A DNA stretch of 14,247 nt, taken from contig DAOWMW010000007.1 in assembly GCA_030642865.1 (NCBI GenBank), positions 1 through 14,247 of the forward strand, written 5' to 3'. The DNA comes from Desulfobacteraceae bacterium (GTDB taxonomy: Bacteria > Desulfobacterota > Desulfobacteria > Desulfobacterales > BuS5). Shown piece by piece: positions 1-11,854 of this stretch (position 1 is the first letter of the stretch; every line of letters starts with the position of its first letter). Below the pieces are notes generated by a model. The model saw nothing but the letters and a program-made list of their open reading frames with translations, had not been told where the DNA came from and ran no database searches. The translations under genes were made by a program, and so were the position numbers.

Positions 1-468
1 GTCAAGAATTTTTATTAATGGATCAGGTGCAGGTTTAGGATGTTTAACATCCATTGCCGTAACTACAATGTCAAAATATTCGGCAATGTCATGGTTGATC
101 AAGATGGAACCCATGGTATTAGTCCGATTTGTGGCAATGGCAATTTTATACCTGCCTCGCAGCTTTTTTAGCAGCGGTTTTAAAAAGGGTTCTATTTCCA
201 TATATTTAAGAAATTGAGAATAATCCAGATTTTTACAATGGAGGAGCGCTTCTTTTGTGCAGGGTGAATTTTTAAACAGATAGCAAATTGATTCATGGGC
301 AGTATGCATATGAACATAGGCAAATTGCTCCTCTGTCATTTCAGGGATGCTAAAATGTTTTAAAATAGAATTATAATAAACCTTGTTGGTGTTTATTGTA
401 TCGAACATTACTCCATCACAGTCAAAAGCAATCACTTTAATCTTTTTTAGAATCTGCCTGTTCATCAT
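1..468 (-). CDS. HAD-superfamily phosphatase, phosphoglycolate phosphatase-like (3' end outside window)
   Basis: A haloacid dehalogenase-type phosphohydrolase, likely cytoplasmic and acting on a small phosphorylated metabolite. The frame is open from ATG at 468 to the left edge, giving 156 residues. Motif I is DCDGVMFDT at residues 16-24, with the two catalytic Asp at 16 and 18. The motif II region is ATNRT at 112-116 and the motif III Lys lies in KHPKPAPDP near residue 145. The helical segment between motifs I and II fits a small cap domain, as in phosphoglycolate phosphatase and related enzymes; the substrate cannot be read from the sequence. The motif IV acidic residues would lie beyond the edge. 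A second ATG follows at 465. The start overlaps the last 32 bp of the upstream DUF1573 gene and the ribosome binding site is weak (AAGAG about 8 nt upstream), which suggests translational coupling. The family assignment is firm; the specific activity is not. Confidence 0.88.
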   Translation of the reverse strand, partial: MMNRQILKKIKVIAFDCDGVMFDTINTNKVYYNSILKHFSIPEMTEEQFAYVHMHTAHESICYLFKNSPCTKEALLHCKNLDYSQFLKYMEIEPFLKPLLKKLRGRYKIAIATNRTNTMGSILINHDIAEYFDIVVTAMDVKHPKPAPDPLIKILD

Positions 469-1210
469 TTTTTTTGCTCTTTATCTCTTTTTTTTTAATG
501 TTTCCGACAATAGTTATTTTTATTTCAGGCTGCAGGCTGCTGTCTGTTTTTAAATATATAATATCAAAAAAACTTCCAGGCTCCTGTTTTGAATTTTCAA
601 TTAGCAGAAGATACTCATCATTTTTAAGGCTGTTTTTCTTTTTTTCCAGCTTGTAGGTAATATTTTGTCCCCGCCGGGCCTTTGTGGAAATTATTTTAAA
701 GGGATATTTTTTTTCAGGTATAATTTTTACTGAAGCTGTTATTTTTGTCCCTGCATGACCGTTTAATCTTACCCATGCCGGCATAATAGTGACAAATTTT
801 TCCACGTTTCCAGATATTAAAAGTTTTGTTATCTTGTTATTGGGATCATTTGTATATACTCTTATTGATCTTAAAAAATTTTTTCCGCCATATCCTGCTG
901 TATTAGCCTTGATTATTACTTCCCCCTTTCCGCCGGAAGGGATCTCTTTTGTGAAAGAGACAGTTGTACAGCCTCACCCTGCTCTGACCTGTTCAATAAA
1001 TAAGACCGAAGTCCCCTTGTTGAACAGAGCAAAGTTATGAACCACTATGGTTCCATCGATCACTTTTTTAAGTTCAAATTTTTTTTCAGGGAAATACGCA
1101 ACAGGGAATGTCCCAGGGAGTGTTTCAGAAGCAAAGGAGGGTACAACTGGAAATAAGAATAAAAGGGTAAATATAAAAAGTAATTTTTTATTAAAATGCT
1201 TTATTATCAT
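437..1210 (-). CDS. Exported DUF1573 protein with in-frame UGA, probable selenoprotein (Sec79)
   Basis: Read with UGA 974-976 as selenocysteine, this is one 257-residue protein. Residues 1-27 form a Sec-type signal peptide (basic start, hydrophobic core, SFAS cleavage region), so it is probably periplasmic or surface exposed. Residues 37-135 match the DUF1573 beta-sandwich pattern: a VHNFALFNKG strand, then EQVRAG, the motif U-G-C-T, an IPSGGKGEV turn and a VYTNDP strand ending in ISGNVE. In the family the motif is normally C-G-C-T, so UGA replaces the first Cys exactly and Cys81 is retained, leaving a Sec-x-Cys pair. The tail after 240 is rich in Lys, Glu and Asp. The start at 1210 has a weak AAGG site; the gene begins 34 bp after priA ends and overlaps the HAD gene. 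The function of DUF1573 is poorly known, and a redox or metal role for the U-x-C pair is inference. The alternative is a nonsense mutation of a Cys codon. Conventional annotation would split it into 78-aa and 122-aa pieces. Confidence 0.8.
924..976 (-). promoter_or_regulatory. UGA codon with candidate SECIS-like stem-loops
   Basis: Reading the minus strand, UGA (976-974) is followed by two hairpins. The first (961-942) is an 8-bp stem, GUCUCUUU with AAAGAGAU, closing a CACA loop that starts 21 nt after UGA. The second (941-924) pairs CCCUUCC with GGAAAGGG (one bulged A) around a GGC loop that starts 40 nt after UGA. Bacterial SECIS elements normally place an apical loop with an early G roughly 16-37 nt after UGA. 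The first hairpin fits the distance but lacks the G; the second has the G but is slightly far. This is a plausible but non-consensus SelB signal. Confidence 0.4.
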
Positions 1211-1244: not shown

Positions 1245-3704
1245 TTACATCATAAAAAAAGGGTCCACATCTATGGTAACCTTAACATTTTTTGTATAAA
1301 ATATCGATCTGTTTTTAACCAGCAACTGGCGCATAAATTGCTGCAGGGATTTTATGCTTAATCCTTTTAGCATAATCTGCCATCTGTATTTTTTTGCAAT
1401 CATATAAACAGGTGCTTCAATGGGGCCGAGAACTTCCACGTATTTTAAAAAAGAAGCCTCTTTTTTAAGGTTGTTGCAAAGTGTTCCAACAAAAAAAGCA
1501 TGTTTTTTAGTTTTCTCCTCCTCTTTTCCTGAAATTCTGAGCTGAATTATTCGTGAAAAAGGGGGATAATTTAAAGCTTTGCGCAGTTCTATCTCCTGTT
1601 CATAGAATGCGGCATAATCCTGATTTTTTGCAGCTATAATACTAAAATGATCAGGATTGTATGTTTGTAAAATCACTTTTCCCGGAGTATCTCCACGACC
1701 TGCCCTCCCCGCCACCTGGGCTATGAGCTGAAATGTCCGTTCACATGCACGAAAATCGGGAAAGTTTAATGAAAGATCCGCACAAATAACGCCAACCAGA
1801 GTAATGTTTGAAAAATCATGCCCCTTTGCCACCATCTGAGTTCCTATTAACACATCTGTTGTTCGATTTTTTAATCCTTTTAATATTTTTAAAACCGATC
1901 CTTTTTTGGCAGTTGTATCATGGTCCATTCTTTCAACTTTTGCTTCAGGGAAAAGGGCATTTACTGCGGACTCTATTTTTTCGGTGCCAAGGCCAAGGAG
2001 TTTAATACTTTTTGAGCCGCATATGGGACAATGGACATCATCTGAACATGAAAAACCGCAATAGTGGCAGTTATATCCATGGGTCTGTTTGTGAAAAGTG
2101 AGAGTAATGGAACAATGGCAGCATTTTAATGATTCACCGCAGGCTGCGCAGACAGGATGACTTGCAAATCCCCTTTGATTTAAAAAAAGGAGGACCTGTT
2201 CTTTGCGGGCGAGGGTTTTTTTCATTTCATCATATAATCTTTGTGTAATAAAGCGATCCACACCCCTTGCATTTTTATTTGCCCGGAGATCTATTATTGA
2301 AATTTCCGGCAAAGAACGCTGTTCAACCCGTTTTGTGATGGATAGTCTGGAATACTTATTTGTTGCTGCATTATAATATGACTGGATAGAAGGGGTGGCA
2401 GATCCCAGCAGAACAACGCAATCGTTTTGTTTTGCCCGGACTACTGCAAGATCCCTTGCATTATAGCATAACCCGTCATTTTGTTTAAAGGAAGTGTCAT
2501 GCTCCTCATCTACAATAATCAAACCGAGATTGTTTAAAGGTGCAAAAACAGCCGATCTGGCGCCAATTACCAGGTTTACCCTCCCCGATGCAATACGAAG
2601 CCACTGGTCATATTTTTCTCCTAAAGAAAGACCGCTATGGAGTACCGCAACATTATTGTTGAAACGTGAGCGAAATTTTTTTGCGGTCTGGGATATAAGG
2701 GCTATTTCAGGGACAAGGATAATAACCGACAAATCGTTTTCCAGGGCATCTGCTGCAAGTCTGGCATAGACTTCAGTTTTACCGCTTCCTGTGACACCTG
2801 CCAGGAGAAAAGGAGCATAGCTTTTTTTAAAATTTAAAACAGTTGACACCGCTTTTTCCTGTTCATCCGTTAGGGTAAAATTAGTGTCAGGTTCTATTTC
2901 TTCTCCAAAGGGATCACGGTATATTTTTTTTTTAAAGACTTCGACCTGCATATCCCTTTCCATCAATTTAATCGTTGATGGAGAAAACTGTACAATTTTT
3001 TTAAGCTCTTTCAGGGGGAGTTCGGTTTTATCTGTTAAAATATCGATTATTTTTTTTCTTATTGATGAAAGTTTTCTTCCCCTGTGTTCCCTTTCACCCT
3101 GGGGCATTGCCGGATGTTTTGTTAATCTGATATATCTTTCAAACTTTGCCCCTGTTCTCCCCCCTTTTATCACTTTTTCCCTTGAAATATATCCCTTATT
3201 TTCCATTTTAGAGACGAGAAAAGCGGACATCTCAAAATTTATTTTTTTTGCCAGCTCCTTATAAAGATGGGGACCCTTTGCAAGGATGCCCAATATCATA
3301 TTTTCCACAGGTGTTATAAAGTCTTTTTCAAGGCACCCTTCCCCTTTTTTTGTTATGGTAATAAGAGTTGAGTCGTAAAGATTTAAACCGCCGGGCAAGG
3401 CGTGTTGTATAACTTCACCAACAGGATATATGTAATAATTTGCTATCCATTTGAAAAAAGGTACCATGGAGCCAGGGAAAAGGGGAATTCGGTCAAGGAT
3501 ATCAAGTATGAATTTTATCCCATCCCGGGTTGCATCCCTCCCTTGTCCGATAATATAACCGGTAACAATCCGTTTCCCAAAGGGAACCAAAACTCTTTTC
3601 CCAACGCAGGCAGCACTTTTTAGTTCCCCATCTGTTTTGTATGTATAAGTATTAAATACGGGGAGGGTGATGGCAACTTCAATGTATTTAGATTTGCAGC
3701 CCAT
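1245..3704 (-). CDS. priA: Primosomal protein N' (replication restart helicase PriA)
   Basis: PriA is the superfamily 2 DNA helicase that recognises stalled forks and loads the replisome. From ATG 3704 the product is 819 aa, slightly longer than the E. coli protein. It has an N-terminal 3'BD-type region beginning YIEVAITLP, Walker A GVTGSGKT at about 303-310, DEEH at 399-402, SATPS near 435, then a zinc-binding insert and the C-terminal helicase motifs GTQMVAKGHDF and QVAGRAGRG. The eight zinc ligands (Cys 519, 522, 528, 531, 546, 549, 559, 562) have the same spacing as in E. coli PriA. In-frame GTG 3749 and ATG 3746 exist upstream, but they would add a hydrophobic leader that is not typical of the family, so I prefer 3704 although it has no clear ribosome binding site. 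It lies about 135 bp after fabH and 34 bp before the DUF1573 gene, all on the same strand. Confidence 0.97.
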   Translation of the reverse strand: MGCKSKYIEVAITLPVFNTYTYKTDGELKSAACVGKRVLVPFGKRIVTGYIIGQGRDATRDGIKFILDILDRIPLFPGSMVPFFKWIANYYIYPVGEVIQHALPGGLNLYDSTLITITKKGEGCLEKDFITPVENMILGILAKGPHLYKELAKKINFEMSAFLVSKMENKGYISREKVIKGGRTGAKFERYIRLTKHPAMPQGEREHRGRKLSSIRKKIIDILTDKTELPLKELKKIVQFSPSTIKLMERDMQVEVFKKKIYRDPFGEEIEPDTNFTLTDEQEKAVSTVLNFKKSYAPFLLAGVTGSGKTEVYARLAADALENDLSVIILVPEIALISQTAKKFRSRFNNNVAVLHSGLSLGEKYDQWLRIASGRVNLVIGARSAVFAPLNNLGLIIVDEEHDTSFKQNDGLCYNARDLAVVRAKQNDCVVLLGSATPSIQSYYNAATNKYSRLSITKRVEQRSLPEISIIDLRANKNARGVDRFITQRLYDEMKKTLARKEQVLLFLNQRGFASHPVCAACGESLKCCHCSITLTFHKQTHGYNCHYCGFSCSDDVHCPICGSKSIKLLGLGTEKIESAVNALFPEAKVERMDHDTTAKKGSVLKILKGLKNRTTDVLIGTQMVAKGHDFSNITLVGVICADLSLNFPDFRACERTFQLIAQVAGRAGRGDTPGKVILQTYNPDHFSIIAAKNQDYAAFYEQEIELRKALNYPPFSRIIQLRISGKEEEKTKKHAFFVGTLCNNLKKEASFLKYVEVLGPIEAPVYMIAKKYRWQIMLKGLSIKSLQQFMRQLLVKNRSIFYTKNVKVTIDVDPFFMM

Positions 3705-3790
3705 TTTTTTGATAATAAAATACAAATAAAAAAGGTAAAGGGACATCACTTCACTGGCCTGGTTCTAATTATAGCTCATAGTTGACACCT

Positions 3791-3838: not shown

Positions 3839-4828
3839 CTACTCCATGGCCCAGGTGAGAAAAATGGAACCCCATGAAAAACCTGTTCCAAAAGCCGAAA
3901 AAATTATATTGTCCCCTTTATTCAGCAATCCAGCCTGGTAAATTTCTGAAAGTGCCATGGGAATTGTAGCAGCTGTTGTATTACCATATTTTTCTATGTT
4001 GATAACAACCTGCTCTTTTTTTAAACCTAATTTTTTCGCAGCAGATTCAATGATTCTGAGATTAGCCTGGTGCGGTATATAAAATTTTATATCCTCATTT
4101 GACAATCCGTTTTTCTCCATGATTTTTCTGGTGGTGTCAACCATCCCCAAAATTGCTTTTTTAAATACCACTTTTCCGTCCTGCTGGAGATAATGGAGGC
4201 CTTTGGCAATCGATTCCGGGCTTGCAGGACAAAGGCTCCCCCCCCCAGGCATCTGGAGATAGTTTTTGCCCGAGCCATCCGTTTTGAAAATATAATCCAT
4301 AATTCCAGGACCGTTGTCATCAGAAGGCTCCAGCAAGACTGCTCCTGCTGCATCGCCAAAGAGAATACAGGTATTTCTGTCTTTATAATTTGTTATTGAA
4401 CTCATTTTGTCAGAGCCGATGACCATGACTTTTTTATATTGACCGGTTTCAATAAACTGCTTGGCAGTGATAAACGCAAAAATAAAGCCGGCGCATCCCA
4501 CAAGAAGATCATACCCCCAGCAATTAGTTGCATTGATTTCATGCTGGACAATGGATGCTGTTGATGGAAAAAACATATCAGGGGTTACTGTGGCAACAAT
4601 TATCAGGTCAATTTCATCAGGACCAATTTTTCTTTGTTCCAGAAGACTTCTGGCTGCTTTAGCCGCCATATAAGATGTCCCTTTATCTTTGTCTAAAATT
4701 ACTCTTTCCTTAATTCCGGTCCTGGAGACAATCCATTCATCCGAGGTGTCCACAAGTTTTACAAGATCGGCATTGGTAAGTTTCTCCTCAGGTGCAAAAT
4801 GACTCACAGCGCTTATAATCGCACGCAT
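3839..4828 (-). CDS. fabH: 3-oxoacyl-[ACP] synthase III (KAS III)
   Basis: FabH condenses acetyl-CoA or another short acyl-CoA with malonyl-ACP to start type II fatty acid synthesis in the cytoplasm. The 329-aa product is full length. The thiolase-fold catalytic triad is visible: Cys112 in VGCAGF, His253 in IPHQAN and Asn283 in EKYGNTTAA. The N-terminal SDEWIVSRTGIKER and the GDAAGAVLLEP segment are also typical. The start is supported by AAGGAG (4834-4839, minus strand) 5 nt before ATG. Its neighbours are not other fab genes: ihfA is upstream and priA downstream. The residues around the nucleophile (LLVGCAGF) differ a little from the common AACSGF, so a KAS III homologue that starts branched-chain or secondary-metabolite synthesis cannot be excluded, but housekeeping FabH is most likely. 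Confidence 0.94.
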   Translation of the reverse strand: MRAIISAVSHFAPEEKLTNADLVKLVDTSDEWIVSRTGIKERVILDKDKGTSYMAAKAARSLLEQRKIGPDEIDLIIVATVTPDMFFPSTASIVQHEINATNCWGYDLLVGCAGFIFAFITAKQFIETGQYKKVMVIGSDKMSSITNYKDRNTCILFGDAAGAVLLEPSDDNGPGIMDYIFKTDGSGKNYLQMPGGGSLCPASPESIAKGLHYLQQDGKVVFKKAILGMVDTTRKIMEKNGLSNEDIKFYIPHQANLRIIESAAKKLGLKKEQVVINIEKYGNTTAATIPMALSEIYQAGLLNKGDNIIFSAFGTGFSWGSIFLTWAME

Positions 4829-4897
4829 TAAAACTCCTTCTGCTATTAGATATAGAATATTGTCACATAAATAATTTCACTTCGTTATCTGCCGCCT

Positions 4898-4915
4898 GCG
4901 TATTATATAATACGC
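4898..4915. repeat. 18-bp perfect palindrome in fabH leader
   Basis: GCGTATTATATAATACGC is perfectly self-complementary with no spacer. It lies 70-88 bp upstream of the fabH start, where an operator might sit. The motif is not one I can match to a named regulator. Confidence 0.5.
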
Positions 4916-4960
4916 CTTCCTCCTCTATCCTTCCCAAAATCATTACCTTAAGATCTATAT

Positions 4961-4972
4961 CTGCGGCCGCAG
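4961..4972. repeat. 12-bp GC-rich palindrome in fabH leader
   Basis: CTGCGGCCGCAG is a perfect palindrome and unusually GC-rich for its AT-rich surroundings. It is one of three palindromes in the ihfA-fabH gap. Its function is unknown. Confidence 0.4.
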
Positions 4973-5059
4973 CATTACAATACGATTTCCGGCAAACTTT
5001 AAAATTGAGTAAAATTAAGTGATTATCTGACAATCTATATGTTATGACATATGTTGTGT

Positions 5060-5073
5060 GTTCTTTGAAGAAC
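5060..5073. repeat. 14-bp inverted repeat just downstream of ihfA
   Basis: GTTCTT and AAGAAC flank a 2-bp centre, 22 bp after the ihfA stop. The dyad is operator-like. No T-run follows on the minus strand, so an intrinsic terminator is not supported. Confidence 0.4.
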
Positions 5074-5094
5074 TGTATTAAAATAAAAGTAATC

Positions 5095-5373
5095 CTAATC
5101 TTTAACTTTGTCTCTTAATTTTCCCGAGCACTTAAAAGTTATAACTTTTCTGGCCTGGAGCATCAGGTCAATTCCCGTTGCAGGGTTTCGCCCTTTCCGC
5201 TGATTCTTCTGCTTGACACAAAATTTGCCGAATCCTGAAACAAGGACATCATTACCCTGTGACAGCGTACTCTTGAGAATTTCCAGCAGGTCTTCGACAA
5301 TATCAACAGATTTTTTTTTCGTAAAACCCAAATCGTTAACTCTATCGACTATATCATTTTTGGTTAATGTCAT
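5095..5373 (-). CDS. ihfA: HU/IHF-family DNA-binding protein, IHF alpha-like
   Basis: A 92-aa histone-like protein that bends DNA as a dimer in the nucleoid. The N-terminal helices (LTKNDIVDRV to LLEILKSTL) are followed by the conserved SGFGKF turn at about 46-51. The beta-arm tip is KNQRKGRNPATG at 57-68, with the intercalating Pro in RNPATG, and the ending TFKCSGKLRDKV is typical. The KNQR-GRNP-TG arm resembles IHF alpha more than classic HU, so I call it ihfA, but separating HU from IHF by eye is uncertain. A GGGAGAG ribosome binding site lies 9 nt before ATG 5373. It is divergent from the aminotransferase gene and upstream of fabH on the same strand. IHF usually partners a separate beta subunit, which is not in this window. 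Confidence 0.88.
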   Translation of the reverse strand: MTLTKNDIVDRVNDLGFTKKKSVDIVEDLLEILKSTLSQGNDVLVSGFGKFCVKQKNQRKGRNPATGIDLMLQARKVITFKCSGKLRDKVKD

Positions 5374-5694
5374 CGAAAATTTCTCTCCCTTGTTTTAAAT
5401 TTAATCAAATATCTGTATATTTATTACAACAACTTTTTTTATGGATAATATCAGAGGTGTTTGAAAAATTACAAAACATTTTTTATCCTCCTGAAAATAA
5501 AAAGGATTTATTATTTACAGGCTCATATGTCAAGAAATAATAATATTAATTAATGGATTCGCTTTTAGCTTGACTTTTTTTGTATGTAAGCTGTAAAAAA
5601 TATTGTCACCTGGTTATAAAAAGAAATAAAAAATGGAAACAGGATTTTGCGTTTATGTGAATTTTTGATAATTAAGGAATAAAGGAGGTATATT
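5374..5694. other. Divergent intergenic control region (321 bp)
   Basis: This very AT-rich region separates ihfA (leftward) from the aminotransferase gene (rightward) and must carry promoters for both. A rightward promoter candidate is given separately. I see no tRNA, riboswitch or conserved ORF. Rightward translation signals are excellent: AGGAGG at 5683-5688, 6 nt before ATG 5695. Confidence 0.6.
5570..5599 (+). promoter_or_regulatory. Candidate sigma70 promoter for the aminotransferase-CLC pair
   Basis: TTGACT at 5570-5575 is a near-consensus -35 box. A -10 candidate follows as TGTAAA (5592-5597, 16-bp spacer) or TAAAAA (5594-5599, 18-bp spacer). AGCTT and AAGCT half-sites flank the spacer. 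It would give a leader of roughly 90 nt. In DNA this AT-rich the -10 match is weak evidence. Confidence 0.35.
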
Positions 5695-7008
5695 ATGAAC
5701 CCCCTGGCTAAAACACTCAATCAGACTATTGAAAAAGGGAATTCCAATATAATGAATATGTTGTCGGAAATTGGAAAGAATCTCTTTTTTCCCAAGGGGA
5801 TTTTGAGCCAAAGCGCCGAGGCAAAGGAAAAAGCATATAAATTAAATGCAACCATCGGTATTGCAACAGAAAATGGTGAAACCATGTGCTTTCCATCTAT
5901 CATGGATTCCATATGCGCCATTGCTCCCAGGGACGCATTGACCTATGCTCCTTCTTTTGGAGTGCTTAATTTAAGAAAAAAATGGAAAGAAGCCCAACTA
6001 GAGAAAAACCCTTCACTTGCTGATAAAAGGACAAGTCTTCCTGTGGCTGCTTCGGGAATTACCCATTCCATTAGTGTCTTTGCGGATGTTTGGGTAGATC
6101 CCGGGGATACTATAATATTTCCCGACATGATTTGGGGAAACTATAATCTGATTTTTGATGTGCGAAAAGGTGCCCGTTTAACCCATTTTCCCATGTTTAA
6201 TCAGGAAGGGGGGTTTAACCTGAAAGGGTTTGAGAAAAAAATTGTTGATGAAGCAAAAAAAAATGATAAGATAATAGTTTTTTTAAACTTTCCGAACAAT
6301 CCCACAGGTTATACAGTATCGGAAAAGGAAGGGGAGAGGATCGTTGAAATCCTGACAAATACGGCAAAAAAAGGGACTAACATAATTGCCGTACTTGATG
6401 ATGCTTATTTCGGGCTTTTTTATGAAAAAGAAACATTAAAAGAATCTCTTTTTGCACGGCTTTGTGATCAGGATGAAAGGCTCCTGGCTGTAAAACTGGA
6501 TGGGGCGACAAAAGAAAATTTTGTGTGGGGCCTGCGGGTTGGCTTTATTACTTACGGCTGTAAAATGAAAAATGATCCTGAAGCTGTTTATGATGCCCTT
6601 GCAAAGAAGACCGCAGGAGCTGTAAGGGGTTCTATATCCAATGCCTCCCACCTGGGTCAGTCGATTGTTTTAAAATCAATGGAAGCTGAAAACTATTTTG
6701 CTGAAAAAGCAGAAAAATTTAAAATACTTAAAAAAAGGGCGAACCGTGTAAAAGAAGTGCTGGAAGATCCTAAATATAAAGATGCATGGGATGTTTATCC
6801 CTTTAACTCGGGATACTTTATGTGCATTAAATTAAAAACCGTGGATGCAGAAAAACTGAGAGTTCATATTCTTGAAAAATATGGGGTGGGACTTATCTCA
6901 ATTGGGACAAAAAATCTTAGAGTTGCATTTTCCTGTCTGGAAGAAAGAGATATCCCTGAACTTTTTGATATTATATTAAAAGGTGTAAATGAATTGAACA
7001 ATTCTTGA
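5695..7008 (+). CDS. Fold-type I PLP-dependent aminotransferase (class I/II)
   Basis: A 437-aa cytoplasmic PLP enzyme. Visible landmarks are the Tyr-Ala-Pro segment at 84-86 (substrate domain), NFPNNPTG at 198-205 carrying the cofactor-contacting Asn, LDDAYFG at 234-240 with the Asp and Tyr that hold the pyridine ring, and DGATKENFVWGLRVGF, in which Lys273 is the probable Schiff-base lysine. A C-terminal NLRVAFSCL carries the carboxylate-binding Arg. The general layout is that of aspartate/alanine/aromatic aminotransferases, but the N-terminal 60 residues and the insertions match no specific enzyme I recognise, so the substrate is left open. The start is secure, with AGGAGG 6 nt upstream. The CLC gene starts 12 bp after its stop, so the two are probably co-transcribed. 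Confidence 0.9.
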   Translation: MNPLAKTLNQTIEKGNSNIMNMLSEIGKNLFFPKGILSQSAEAKEKAYKLNATIGIATENGETMCFPSIMDSICAIAPRDALTYAPSFGVLNLRKKWKEAQLEKNPSLADKRTSLPVAASGITHSISVFADVWVDPGDTIIFPDMIWGNYNLIFDVRKGARLTHFPMFNQEGGFNLKGFEKKIVDEAKKNDKIIVFLNFPNNPTGYTVSEKEGERIVEILTNTAKKGTNIIAVLDDAYFGLFYEKETLKESLFARLCDQDERLLAVKLDGATKENFVWGLRVGFITYGCKMKNDPEAVYDALAKKTAGAVRGSISNASHLGQSIVLKSMEAENYFAEKAEKFKILKKRANRVKEVLEDPKYKDAWDVYPFNSGYFMCIKLKTVDAEKLRVHILEKYGVGLISIGTKNLRVAFSCLEERDIPELFDIILKGVNELNNS

Positions 7009-8901: not shown

Positions 8902-9060
8902 AGGGTTCGCACAAAAATAAATTGGCAATTTTAAGTGTTGAGGCGCCCGCCTGGCAAGGCACAAAAGTGCAGTAATATCAGGATATTCCTGCACTTTTGT
9001 AACGCAGTCAGGCGGGATGTATCGGCGCTTAAAATGTTAAATTATTTTTGCGCGAGCCCT
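8902..9060. repeat. Large imperfect palindrome (about 160 bp), hairpin or MITE-like element
   Basis: The arms 8902-8979 and 8982-9060 are inverted copies around an AG centre at 8980-8981. Matching blocks from the outside inward are AGGG-TCGC-CAAAAATAA, ATTTTAAG, CCCGCCTG, ACAAAAGTGCAG and AATATC, with a few small gaps. As RNA or single-stranded DNA it would fold into one long cruciform. It abuts the 50-bp repeat on its left and ends 18 bp before the ATG of the next gene. A folded mobile unit and a strong leader hairpin are both possible. Confidence 0.8.
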
Positions 9061-9078
9061 AACAAAGGACTTGACTCC

Positions 9079-9897
9079 ATGGGAATTGCTGTAAAATGTA
9101 TAAGCCTTGCAACATGTATTGAAAATATACTTGAAAAAGGGATTGTTTTGAATCCTGATCTGCTGCACCATCTTGATTCAGCATTCGGGGTCTGCAGGGC
9201 CAGTGACATTGAAAAAATTTTTTATAACAGAAAAAACTGCGAACGTGAAGTTATCCTTGAGTTGATATTTTATCCTGATGAATCAATGCAAATTGAAATT
9301 GAGCCTGTACTCGAAAAAAATAATTTTTTCAAAAATGATGAAAAAAATTTGGTTAATTTTCTTTTAGCAAAAAAAATACAAATACCAGTTTTCTTTCCAA
9401 CCAGGTCAGATACCCTTGAAATATACGCTGACGCAGTTATTCTCGACAGCCTGGTGAGCAGGTTAAATATTTCAAAACAGATCAACAGCAAAATAACCAC
9501 TACAGTTAATTGCCATATACCTGAAAAAATCAGGCCGGCAGTAAAGGTCAGGCTGAGAAATACGAGGTTCAGATTTCATGATAATTTAATAATATTTATG
9601 GATCTGTTTTTTAAAAGTGAAATCAGTAAAAGAAGTAATTTTTTTGAGATATTCGATTTTTTGTTAAATTTTCTCCATGAAATCGAGGAAAACAATGATA
9701 TTGCAGATTCCCTGAATGAAAAAAAAGAATTTTATCTGCAAAGCCTGGGGAATGCCGCAATACTCCATGAACAGTTAAAAAAAAATACCATGGAAATAAT
9801 GACTGCGCAGAGCATAAGAATTCCAGCGATAAATATTCCGGATATAAAAAGGAAAATAAGGATCATAGATCAGATCAAAAATCTGGTTTTATTATAG
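9079..9897 (+). CDS. Hypothetical protein, 272 aa, family not recognised
   Basis: I do not recognise a family. The open frame extends upstream to TTG 8935, but those 48 codons translate the palindromic element. I therefore start at ATG 9079, which has AAAGGA about 9 nt upstream. The product is soluble-looking, with no signal peptide or membrane helix. It is rich in Ile, Asn, Lys and Phe, with an N-terminal helical part (MGIAVKCISL to LDSAFGVC), a middle beta-rich part around 60-180, and a helical Glu/Asn-rich C-terminal part from about 185 (FFEIFDFLLNFLHEIEENND). No catalytic motif stands out. It lies alone between repeats, convergent with trpF. Length, uninterrupted frame and ribosome binding site favour a real gene. 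Confidence 0.7.
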   Translation: MGIAVKCISLATCIENILEKGIVLNPDLLHHLDSAFGVCRASDIEKIFYNRKNCEREVILELIFYPDESMQIEIEPVLEKNNFFKNDEKNLVNFLLAKKIQIPVFFPTRSDTLEIYADAVILDSLVSRLNISKQINSKITTTVNCHIPEKIRPAVKVRLRNTRFRFHDNLIIFMDLFFKSEISKRSNFFEIFDFLLNFLHEIEENNDIADSLNEKKEFYLQSLGNAAILHEQLKKNTMEIMTAQSIRIPAINIPDIKRKIRIIDQIKNLVLL

Positions 9898-10807: not shown

Positions 10808-11854
10808 CTATATTTTAATCATCCGCATGGATTTACCCTTTGCCATATGGTTATTTTTGCCTTTATCGACTCTTGTGCCCCATGGAGATTCAAGCTTTTT
10901 TTCAGGGTTGAAACCTTCCCAATATAATAAGGGCTCACCTTTTATGGTAAATTTTCCAACTCGATGGTTTTCTGTATCTGCCACATAGACATTTCCGGCT
11001 GTATCTCTTGCTATTCCTGAAGGATGTATAAATTCCTTTTTCCCATAACCATACCTGCCCCATGTGAATATGAAATCACCTGTTGAATTAAATTTTTGAA
11101 TCCGATCATTCCCTGCGTCAGTAACATAGATATTTCCATCATTGTCCGCTGCTATGGCATATGGATAATTAAAATTTCCTTTTTCACTTCCTTCCTCGCC
11201 CCATTTGAGCAAAAATTCTCCCTGGGATGTAAATTTTATAATTCTGTTGTTTCCAGCATCTGCCACATATACATTTTCATTGTTGTCCGCTGTTATACCG
11301 TGGGGAGAATCAAGTTCATTATTTTTTTCCCCTTTGATCCCCCAGCTGCACAAAAAATCACCATCTGCGGTGAATTTTACTATTCGATTATTTCCCGTAT
11401 CTGCCACATATACATATCCATTATTGTCTGTTGCTATACCGCTGGGAGAAAAAAAATCATATTCATATCTTTCCGAGATTCTCCACTGGCATAAAAAGTC
11501 ACCATCTGTGGTAAATTTTACTTTTCGATTATTTCCCGTGTCTGCCACATATATATATCCATTATTATCTATTGCTATATCATAGGGGAAAAAAAATTCT
11601 TTTTCACCATCTCCACGCCCCCCCCATTGAAATAAAAGCTCTCCCCTGGTGTTAAATTTTTTAATTTTATGATTATTTGTATCAACAACATAAATCTCTT
11701 TGTTATTAAATACTGACAGGCCATGGGGAGAATTAAAATGCCAGGATTCATCATGCTCTATTTCCACATATTTATTTTCTCCCTCCGCTCTGAAGTCTGA
11801 AAAAAATACAAAAAAAGTAAAAACAGCTAAGGTCACGATTCTATTCTTTTTCAA
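10808..11854 (-). CDS. Secreted NHL-repeat beta-propeller protein
   Basis: A 348-aa protein with an N-terminal signal peptide (MKKNRIVTLAVFTFFVFF, cleavage probably near 23), so exported. Six NHL repeats of about 47 residues follow, each with the pattern P-x-GIA-DNNGN-YVADTGNNRI-KF and a G-WG loop, at about 42, 90, 137, 184, 231 and 278. A seventh copy at 323-348 aligns along its length but has lost the motif (GTRVDKGKNN...MRMIKI). The repeats are also near-repeats at DNA level (about 141 bp). NHL propellers usually mediate binding, and the ligand is unknown. The start is TTG at 11854; GGAGG lies 5 nt before it and no ATG competes. It is upstream of trpF on the same strand but separated by a palindrome and a MITE-like element. 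Confidence 0.9.
   Translation of the reverse strand: MKKNRIVTLAVFTFFVFFSDFRAEGENKYVEIEHDESWHFNSPHGLSVFNNKEIYVVDTNNHKIKKFNTRGELLFQWGGRGDGEKEFFFPYDIAIDNNGYIYVADTGNNRKVKFTTDGDFLCQWRISERYEYDFFSPSGIATDNNGYVYVADTGNNRIVKFTADGDFLCSWGIKGEKNNELDSPHGITADNNENVYVADAGNNRIIKFTSQGEFLLKWGEEGSEKGNFNYPYAIAADNDGNIYVTDAGNDRIQKFNSTGDFIFTWGRYGYGKKEFIHPSGIARDTAGNVYVADTENHRVGKFTIKGEPLLYWEGFNPEKKLESPWGTRVDKGKNNHMAKGKSMRMIKI

What the first reader, a model, noticed from the sequence alone, without database searches (positions are those of the whole stretch)
437..1210. Probable selenocysteine in a DUF1573 protein: U-G-C-T replaces C-G-C-T
Directly seen: one continuous DUF1573-like frame is interrupted only by UGA 974-976. 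Both sides match the domain without a gap, and the UGA falls on the first Cys of the family's Cys-Gly-Cys motif. Known: Cys-to-Sec replacement at conserved Cys positions is the classic signature of a selenoprotein, and sulfate-reducing Deltaproteobacteria are rich in them. Inferred: a U-x-C redox or metal-binding pair in an exported protein of largely unknown function. I cannot say whether this family is already listed as a selenoprotein. Standard gene callers would split it and miss it.
Basis: partly seen in the sequence, partly recalled or inferred. Interest (0 to 1): 0.85.

Follow-up and report, generated by a model that had tools for sequence, protein, structure and literature searches.

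The report
Selenoprotein gene with two-hairpin insertion signal
A gene in a Desulfobacterales-type bacterium reads one stop codon as the rare amino acid selenocysteine; the protein family was already known, but the RNA signal behind the stop codon looks like two hairpins in a row instead of the usual single one, which may explain some signals that current prediction rules miss.

Summary
One DUF1573 frame (1210-437, minus strand) is broken only by UGA 976-974, on the first Cys of C-G-C. The Sec reading is right: in 112 aligned homologous frames the column is UGA in 92, Cys in 19, gap in 1; the genome encodes SelA, SelB and SelD. tRNA-Sec was not found in this 67%-complete MAG, but is in 76 of 96 genomes searched in the order. 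The family is already known (OS_HP2). What seems new is the RNA. Two adjacent hairpins follow the UGA: the first pairs well beyond a synonymous-codon null and covaries; the second has the G-loop typical of SelB sites, but about 39 nt away. Neither usually fits the published SECIS model (4 and 5 of 90 genes), whereas selD (26 of 26 located) and FlpD (18 of 18 located) do. Subtracting hairpin 1 leaves about 21 nt, close to selD's 20. I propose a two-part SECIS; the hairpins' roles are inferred, covariation of hairpin 2 is weak, and RNAalifold missed hairpin 1. The founding 2007 paper was not readable here.

The parts
437..1210 (-). OS_HP2/DUF1573 selenoprotein gene, 257 codons, read through one UGA; TAA stop at 439-437
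974..976 (-). in-frame UGA, proposed selenocysteine codon (residue 79)
   Evidence: UGA in 92 and Cys in 19 of 112 aligned frames
968..976 (-). U-G-C motif (residues 79-81)
   Evidence: Cys at the partner position in 109 of 112 frames
942..961 (-). hairpin 1 (HP1), 8 bp in the fold of this sequence, loop CACA, starting 12 nt after the UGA
   Evidence: fold; homologues
924..941 (-). hairpin 2 (HP2), 7 bp with one bulge in the 60-nt fold; apical loop GGC at 934-932, 39 nt after the UGA
1127..1210 (-). N-terminal hydrophobic stretch that reads as an export signal (by eye; no signal-peptide program run)
   Evidence: lower pLDDT and a helix at residues 6-18
803..1093 (-). DUF1573 / HYDIN-VesB-like Ig domain 1 (residues 40-136)
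   Evidence: structure matches
491..796 (-). second Ig-like domain (residues 139-240), no Pfam match
   Evidence: predicted structure; matches over about 138-240
1245..3749 (-). priA, upstream neighbour
   Evidence: Pfam PriA domains; a PriA-cluster protein near 43 of 85 Sec genes
1..468 (-). HAD-family hydrolase, downstream neighbour, cut by the window end
   Evidence: a HAD-cluster protein near 64 of 85 Sec genes

Best explanation
Shown by sequence: the gene encodes a member of the known OS_HP2/DUF1573 selenoprotein family (two Ig-like domains in the predicted structure), with UGA where other relatives have Cys, in a genome with selA, selB and selD. Inferred: SelB and tRNA-Sec decode UGA 976-974 as selenocysteine, giving an exported protein whose only well-conserved Cys/Sec site is the U-G-C pair, probably used for thiol/selenol chemistry or soft-metal binding. 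Most likely insertion mechanism (inferred): a two-part SECIS. HP2, with a GG apical loop like that of selD, is the SelB-binding hairpin. HP1 lies between it and the UGA and folds away about 16-20 nt, so that the effective UGA-to-loop spacing falls from about 39 to about 21 nt, near the normal spacing in these genomes. My confidence in the steps: Sec insertion about 0.97; both hairpins real RNA elements about 0.85; SelB on HP2 with HP1 as spacer about 0.45.
For: Protein: NCBIfam OS_HP2_seleno, 118.7 bits against a cut-off of 100; UGA/Cys column; selA, selB, selD, selD itself carrying a UGA. RNA: in 85 ungapped UGA genes HP1 forms 5.00 of 6 pairs against 2.90 under synonymous recoding with the locus's own codons (replicate sd 0.11, maximum of 300 3.19), and HP2 5.74 of 7 against 4.34 (0.10, maximum 4.60). 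An unguided covariation scan ranks HP1 pairs 16-29 and 17-28 first and second, 18-27 sixth. On alignment A1, 82 cells have changes on both sides against 28.6 in shuffles (0 of 500 reach it); on the Cys alignment A2 none of the five measures stands out from the shuffles. On starred tree branches HP1 pair 16-29 co-changes in 4.8 of 5 independent pairs and 17-28 in 3.6 of 4, none opposed; two mispartnered controls, 0.2 of 5 and 0.2 of 4. All 18 Sec genes of named records not seen before have a hairpin of 4 bp or more in both regions, including the Olavius Delta 1 symbiont. Spacing: HP2 loop at 37-42 nt less the HP1 span = median 21, IQR 19-23, n 81 of 90; selD loop at 20 nt in 23 of 26.
Against: tRNA-Sec was not found in this MAG. 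RNAalifold on A1 predicts three pairs in the HP2 region, one off my register, and no HP1. HP2 covariation is weak: pair 38-49 shows no co-change in 6 independent pairs, 35-52 was uninformative because position 52 hardly varies, and HP2 overlaps the conserved I-P-P-G-G-E-G codons. The 15 Cys genes are not wholly free of the signal: HP1 2.80 against 2.14 exceeds all 300 null replicates (maximum 2.67), and HP2 4.33 against 3.68 lies high in the null (maximum 4.60); fossil SECIS could explain it, but I did not prove this. A hairpin of 4 bp or more is not specific: 10 of 15 Cys genes have one in the HP1 region, and the 6 with both give the same subtracted spacing (median 21.5), since position follows from the codons. 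In A1, partners slid by -1 still give 64 double-change cells against 82. Effective spacing varies from 17 to 25. No experiment and no SelB-binding data.
Confidence: 0.8

Rival explanations
1. HP1 alone is the SECIS: SelB of this lineage binds a hairpin at the usual distance whose loop lacks the usual G, and HP2 is mostly a by-product of the conserved P-P-G-G-E-G codons.
For: HP1 starts about 11-12 nt after the UGA and its loop lies at 17-18 nt in 68 of 90 genes, within the published 16-37 nt. HP1 has the stronger covariation.
Against: With loop and stem size in the model's range, HP1's loop has a G in its first two positions in 5 of 90 genes, HP2's in 79 of 90. HP2 pairing also exceeds the synonymous null, and HP2 has 4 bp in the Cys gene L134 against 9 in its Sec sister L130. 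selD and FlpD of the same order use mostly GG-type loops.
Confidence: 0.2
2. HP1 is a recoding enhancer that slows termination at the UGA, in the manner of eukaryotic SRE hairpins, while HP2 is the SelB site; spacing is not the point.
For: HP1 sits just behind the UGA; SRE structures downstream of UGA-Sec are described for SELENON and SELENOT (PMC8704476, passages). Its loop sequence has no conserved G.
Against: No bacterial SRE is known to me (recall, not searched). The fit of the subtracted spacing to selD's would then be coincidence.
Confidence: 0.25
3. The UGA is a true stop, a sequencing error or a decayed gene.
For: The source is an incomplete MAG; tRNA-Sec was not found in it.
Against: UGA at the same column in 92 of 112 aligned frames; domain match across the stop; RNA constraint mainly in UGA genes.
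Confidence: 0.01
4. The genome reads UGA as another amino acid throughout (altered code).
For: None found.
Against: The aminotransferase 5695-7008 ends in UGA just before the next gene; selA, selB and selD are present.
Confidence: 0.005

Closest known systems
OS_HP2 family (seleno)protein, NCBIfam NF041425; 'DUF1573 domain-containing protein, UGC' of the selenoprotein lists
   Same: Same domain, same U-G-C motif, over the curated cut-off. The reviews credit the family to the 2007 study of the Olavius algarvensis symbiont (PMC13188914 and PMC9312934, passages); the record titled Olavius sp. associated proteobacterium Delta 1 has the same UGA and both hairpins (L291).
   Different: Nothing that I found in the protein sets it apart; it is one more member.
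Published bacterial SECIS model (PMC13188914 Fig 2 legend, passage)
   Different: HP2's loop lies at 38-42 nt in 74 of the 82 genes where the hairpin forms, beyond 16-37, and a second hairpin lies between. HP1 has the right distance but mostly the wrong loop. HP1 meets the model in 4 of 90 genes and HP2 in 5 (the energy limit of the model was not applied); a laxer search finds some fitting hairpin in 15 of 90.
selD and FlpD SECIS elements of the same order
   Same: Hairpin with a G-bearing, mostly GGA, apical loop.
   Different: One fitting hairpin, loop at 17-20 nt (26 of 26 located selD, folded in a short sub-window; in whole 60-nt folds 20 of 23 located selD show a loop at 19-20) and 22-23 nt (18 of 18 located FlpD sites).
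Eukaryotic SRE (selenocysteine redefinition element)
   Same: A structure just downstream of UGA-Sec, separate from the element that binds the Sec factor (PMC8704476, passages).
   Different: Eukaryotic, with the SECIS in the 3' UTR; here both hairpins are in the coding region. A likeness of position only.

Membership tests
OS_HP2 / DUF1573 selenoprotein (NF041425) | score over the curated cut-off | tested here: met
   118.7 v 100 bits on the read-through protein; 111.5 bits in the whole-genome search
OS_HP2 / DUF1573 selenoprotein (NF041425) | UGA at the first Cys of the C-G-C motif, with Cys homologues | tested here: met
   U 92, C 19, gap 1 of 112
Sec-decoding organism | selA, selB and selD | tested here: met
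Sec-decoding organism | selC (tRNA-Sec) | tested here: inconclusive
   not found in the 67%-complete MAG; 76 of 96 genomes searched in the order are over cut-off
[quoted passage not shown]
   window: HP1 loop CACA at 20 nt (no G), HP2 loop GGC at 39 nt; family: HP1 4 of 90, HP2 5 of 90, any hairpin in a laxer search 15 of 90
Bacterial SECIS, by function | binds SelB and directs Sec insertion | not testable with these tools
   needs binding or reporter assays
Selenoprotein, by product | selenium at the UGA-encoded residue | not testable with these tools
   needs mass spectrometry or 75Se

The most novel reading that the evidence does not exclude
OS_HP2 genes use a distinct class of bacterial SECIS: two adjacent hairpins, in which the first is a spacer that folds away about 16-20 nt and brings a distant SelB-binding hairpin to the standard effective distance. 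If spacers of this kind are general, the 'distance' rule for bacterial SECIS should be counted along the folded RNA, and part of the unexplained non-conforming elements would be accounted for.
Probability: 0.4. Interest if true: 0.65.

Novelty: new variant of a known kind. Interest (0 to 1): 0.5.

Why it matters
The protein adds a member to a known selenoprotein family; here standard ORF calling splits it. The RNA matters more. Reviews say that some bacterial SECIS elements fail the single-hairpin model and that distinct classes may exist (PMC13188914; PMC9312934; [quoted passage not shown] A conserved two-hairpin element, seen in some 100 homologous genes with single-hairpin controls from genomes of the same order, is a concrete and testable candidate for such a class. 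It also suggests (inference) that amino-acid choice after the Sec, R or K and V or A, is tied to RNA pairing inside the coding sequence.

Tried and rejected
Rejected: true stop or pseudogene, and altered code (see rivals). Rfam gave nothing useful for 850-1050: at E up to 10 three hits, all far below their gathering scores. The five tRNA-Sec-like hits in the own genome scored under the cut-off; ARAGORN names them Leu, Glu, Ser, Arg and Arg. No PDB sequence relative at E up to 1. RNAalifold did not recover HP1, nor any of the structure in the Cys alignment; I take the register-shifted members as a likely cause but did not prove it. DUF3179 as a SECIS control failed: 5 of 58 genomes matched and my pattern gave one doubtful site in 5 loci. 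The first FlpD pattern found one doubtful site in 25 loci; a looser one located the G-U-H site in 18 of 25. The first selD pattern located 23 of 30, a second one 26 of 30. The search for related loci with the single protein found nothing. Structure search: the best matches are Ig/ASH/HYDIN-like domains, which give fold but no function. The U-C geometry in the model was not examined. In one search part of the output (pair 14-31) was cut and is not used.

Literature: searches showed me no paper describing a two-hairpin bacterial SECIS. That is weak evidence of absence: the library is open-access only, and the 2007 paper that founded the family is not held and may show its SECIS. Of the papers cited I saw passages by term search and search listings only, none whole.

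Full report
What is there. The minus strand at 1210-437 holds one frame of 257 codons ending in TAA, with a single internal stop, UGA at 976-974. Pfam DUF1573 matches residues 40-136 across it (E 5.1e-18); the piece before the stop alone gives 1.4e-3 and the ORF called after it (437-805) nothing. The UGA stands for the first Cys of C-G-C-T. NCBIfam names the read-through protein OS_HP2_seleno, 118.7 bits against a cut-off of 100.

Is it selenocysteine? A protein search of 96 genomes of the same order (own genome included) found 112 matches in 89 of them. I fetched up to 5 kb on each side of all of them (with the window itself) and aligned the 112 frames: the column is UGA in 92, Cys in 19 and a gap in 1; the partner Cys two residues on is kept in 109. 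UGA was written as C for the aligner, and some distant frames are unsure. For the RNA work I kept frames scoring at least 110 bits, 90 with UGA and 15 with Cys, and for column-wise work dropped 5 UGA genes with indels, leaving 85 and 15. The own genome (a 67%-complete MAG) has selA, selB and selD, the last with its own in-frame UGA. SelA is found in 93 of 96 genomes. tRNA-Sec is not found in the own genome but is over cut-off in 76 of 96. UGA is a normal stop elsewhere in the window. I treat Sec as settled short of experiment.

Already known. OS_HP2 is listed with pfam07610 and UxC in the 2008 ocean survey (PMC2398784, passages), and DUF1573 with 'UGC' in two reviews (PMC9312934, passages; PMC13188914, passages), credited there to the 2007 study of the Olavius symbiont, which was not readable here. 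A search of named genomes found 60 relatives: the best 40 are records titled Desulfobacterales, Deltaproteobacteria, Proteobacteria or the like, among them Olavius sp. associated proteobacterium Delta 1; the weaker 20 include Bacteroidales, Bipolaricaulota and Phycisphaerales. That the window's genome is in Desulfobacterales is inferred from the sequences of its 'same order' relatives turning up in such records. A scan of 395 genomes of the phylum found the family at E up to 1e-3 in 161, over cut-off in 45.

The RNA behind the UGA. Folding showed two hairpins in a row. Counting from the T of TGA as 0, HP1 pairs 14-19 with 26-31, and HP2 pairs 35-41 with 45-46 and 48-52; in the window HP1 is in a shifted register, 15-22 with 27-34. 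In 60-nt folds the mean z of the folding energy against synonymous recoding is -1.37 for 90 UGA genes and -0.68 for 15 Cys genes (Mann-Whitney p 0.018). Further tests address whether this is more than codon bias. (1) Recoding each gene with synonymous codons from its own locus, HP1 has 5.00 of 6 pairs against 2.90 (sd of replicate means 0.11, maximum of 300 replicates 3.19) and HP2 5.74 of 7 against 4.34 (0.10, maximum 4.60). The 15 Cys genes have 2.80 v 2.14 (sd 0.23, maximum 2.67) and 4.33 v 3.68 (sd 0.23, maximum 4.60): far less, but for HP1 still over every replicate. (2) A covariation scan of all position pairs, with codons permuted within columns among equal amino acids, puts HP1 pairs 16-29 (z 6.4) and 17-28 (z 5.5) first and second; third is 18-26, one off the register, and 18-27 is sixth. 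Fourth and fifth are 39-47 and 35-50, in the HP2 region but not pairs of my HP2. This null does not control for genome GC. (3) For the stated structure, 82.6% of cells pair, 12 of 13 pairs have changes on both sides, and 82 such cells compare with 28.6 in shuffles, 0 of 500 reaching it; sliding the partners by 1 to 3 columns gives 37.5 to 55.3% paired and 10 to 64 such cells. The Cys alignment gives 54.9% against 53.4% (126 of 500), with no measure clearly above its shuffles. (4) Related rows inflate such counts, so I used independent pairs on starred branches of a protein tree: 16-29 co-changes in 4.8 of 5 and 17-28 in 3.6 of 4, none opposed; the two mispartnered controls co-change in 0.2 and oppose in 1.2 and 1.3. 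With so few pairs p 0.05 cannot be reached. HP2 pair 38-49 shows no co-change in 6; 35-52 is uninformative, as 52 hardly varies; the alternative 35-50 gives 2.1 of 6. Against the structure, RNAalifold finds three pairs in the HP2 region, one off my register, and no HP1.

Why it is unusual. The published model asks for a 3-9 nt apical loop, a 4-16 bp stem, G in the first two loop positions, and 16-37 nt from the UGA (PMC13188914, passage). Of 90 UGA genes, HP1 meets these in 4 and HP2 in 5. HP2 forms 4 bp or more in 82, with the G-loop in 79; its loop lies at 39 nt in 56, 38 in 15, 37 in 8 and 42 in 3. A laxer sliding search finds some fitting hairpin in 15 of 90. Controls from the same order: selD, the 30 loci kept and the own genome examined, 26 UGA sites located, all 26 fit, loop at 20 nt in 23 (in whole 60-nt folds 20 of 23 located show a loop at 19-20 nt); FlpD, 25 loci chosen by me among the many UGA-bearing matches, 18 G-U-H sites located, all 18 fit at 22-23 nt. 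Subtracting the HP1 span from the HP2 distance gives median 21, IQR 19-23, range 17-25, n 81; the 6 Cys genes with both hairpins give 21.5, so the figure partly reflects fixed codon positions. Outside the order the same pair is seen by eye in several genes (for example L196, L204, L212). In named genomes I examined 42 of the 60 loci; the motif was located in 41: 35 Sec and 6 Cys. Of the Sec genes 34 have hairpins of 4 bp or more in both regions, including all 18 not seen before; of the Cys genes 3 of 6 do.

Evolution. A tree of 107 proteins with the Sec column masked needs 8 Sec/Cys changes, at least 5 on starred branches; its bootstrap had not settled. The sister pair L130 (UGA) and L134 (Cys) is telling: both have a 7-bp HP1, while HP2 has 9 bp in the first and 4 in the second.

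Verdict. The two-hairpin signal does not fit the accepted model and deserves experiment.

Noticed in passing
L039 near 1531 (own genome, C81): selD of the same genome carries an in-frame UGA, so it too is probably a selenoprotein.
   Followed up: partly
L132 (G069), about 4017-5744, minus strand: A Sec form and a Cys form of the same family lie side by side.
   Followed up: partly
L130 and L134: Sister genes in the tree, one UGA and one Cys; the Cys gene keeps a 7-bp hairpin 1 but has only 4 bp in hairpin 2, like a fossil SECIS.
   Followed up: partly
L147 (G052): UGA kept, but the Gly-Cys partner of the motif is not there (U-A-S-I), while hairpin 1 is found about 3 nt further on.
   Followed up: no
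L084, L085, L103, L142: Sec DUF1573 genes next to a MauE/DoxX-like membrane protein, and in some a rhodanese, instead of priA and HAD. Pfam was run on the L084 pair only; the others are by eye or by clustering.
   Followed up: partly
window 10808-11854, minus strand: 348-aa ORF with repeated stretches that look like NHL beta-propeller repeats (by eye; not scanned).
   Followed up: no
window 8935-9897, plus strand: 320-aa ORF of unknown nature; not scanned.
   Followed up: no
upstream of 21 of 85 Sec loci, opposite strand (for example L051): A recurring small, membrane-like protein among the second or third neighbours upstream, of unknown function.
   Followed up: no
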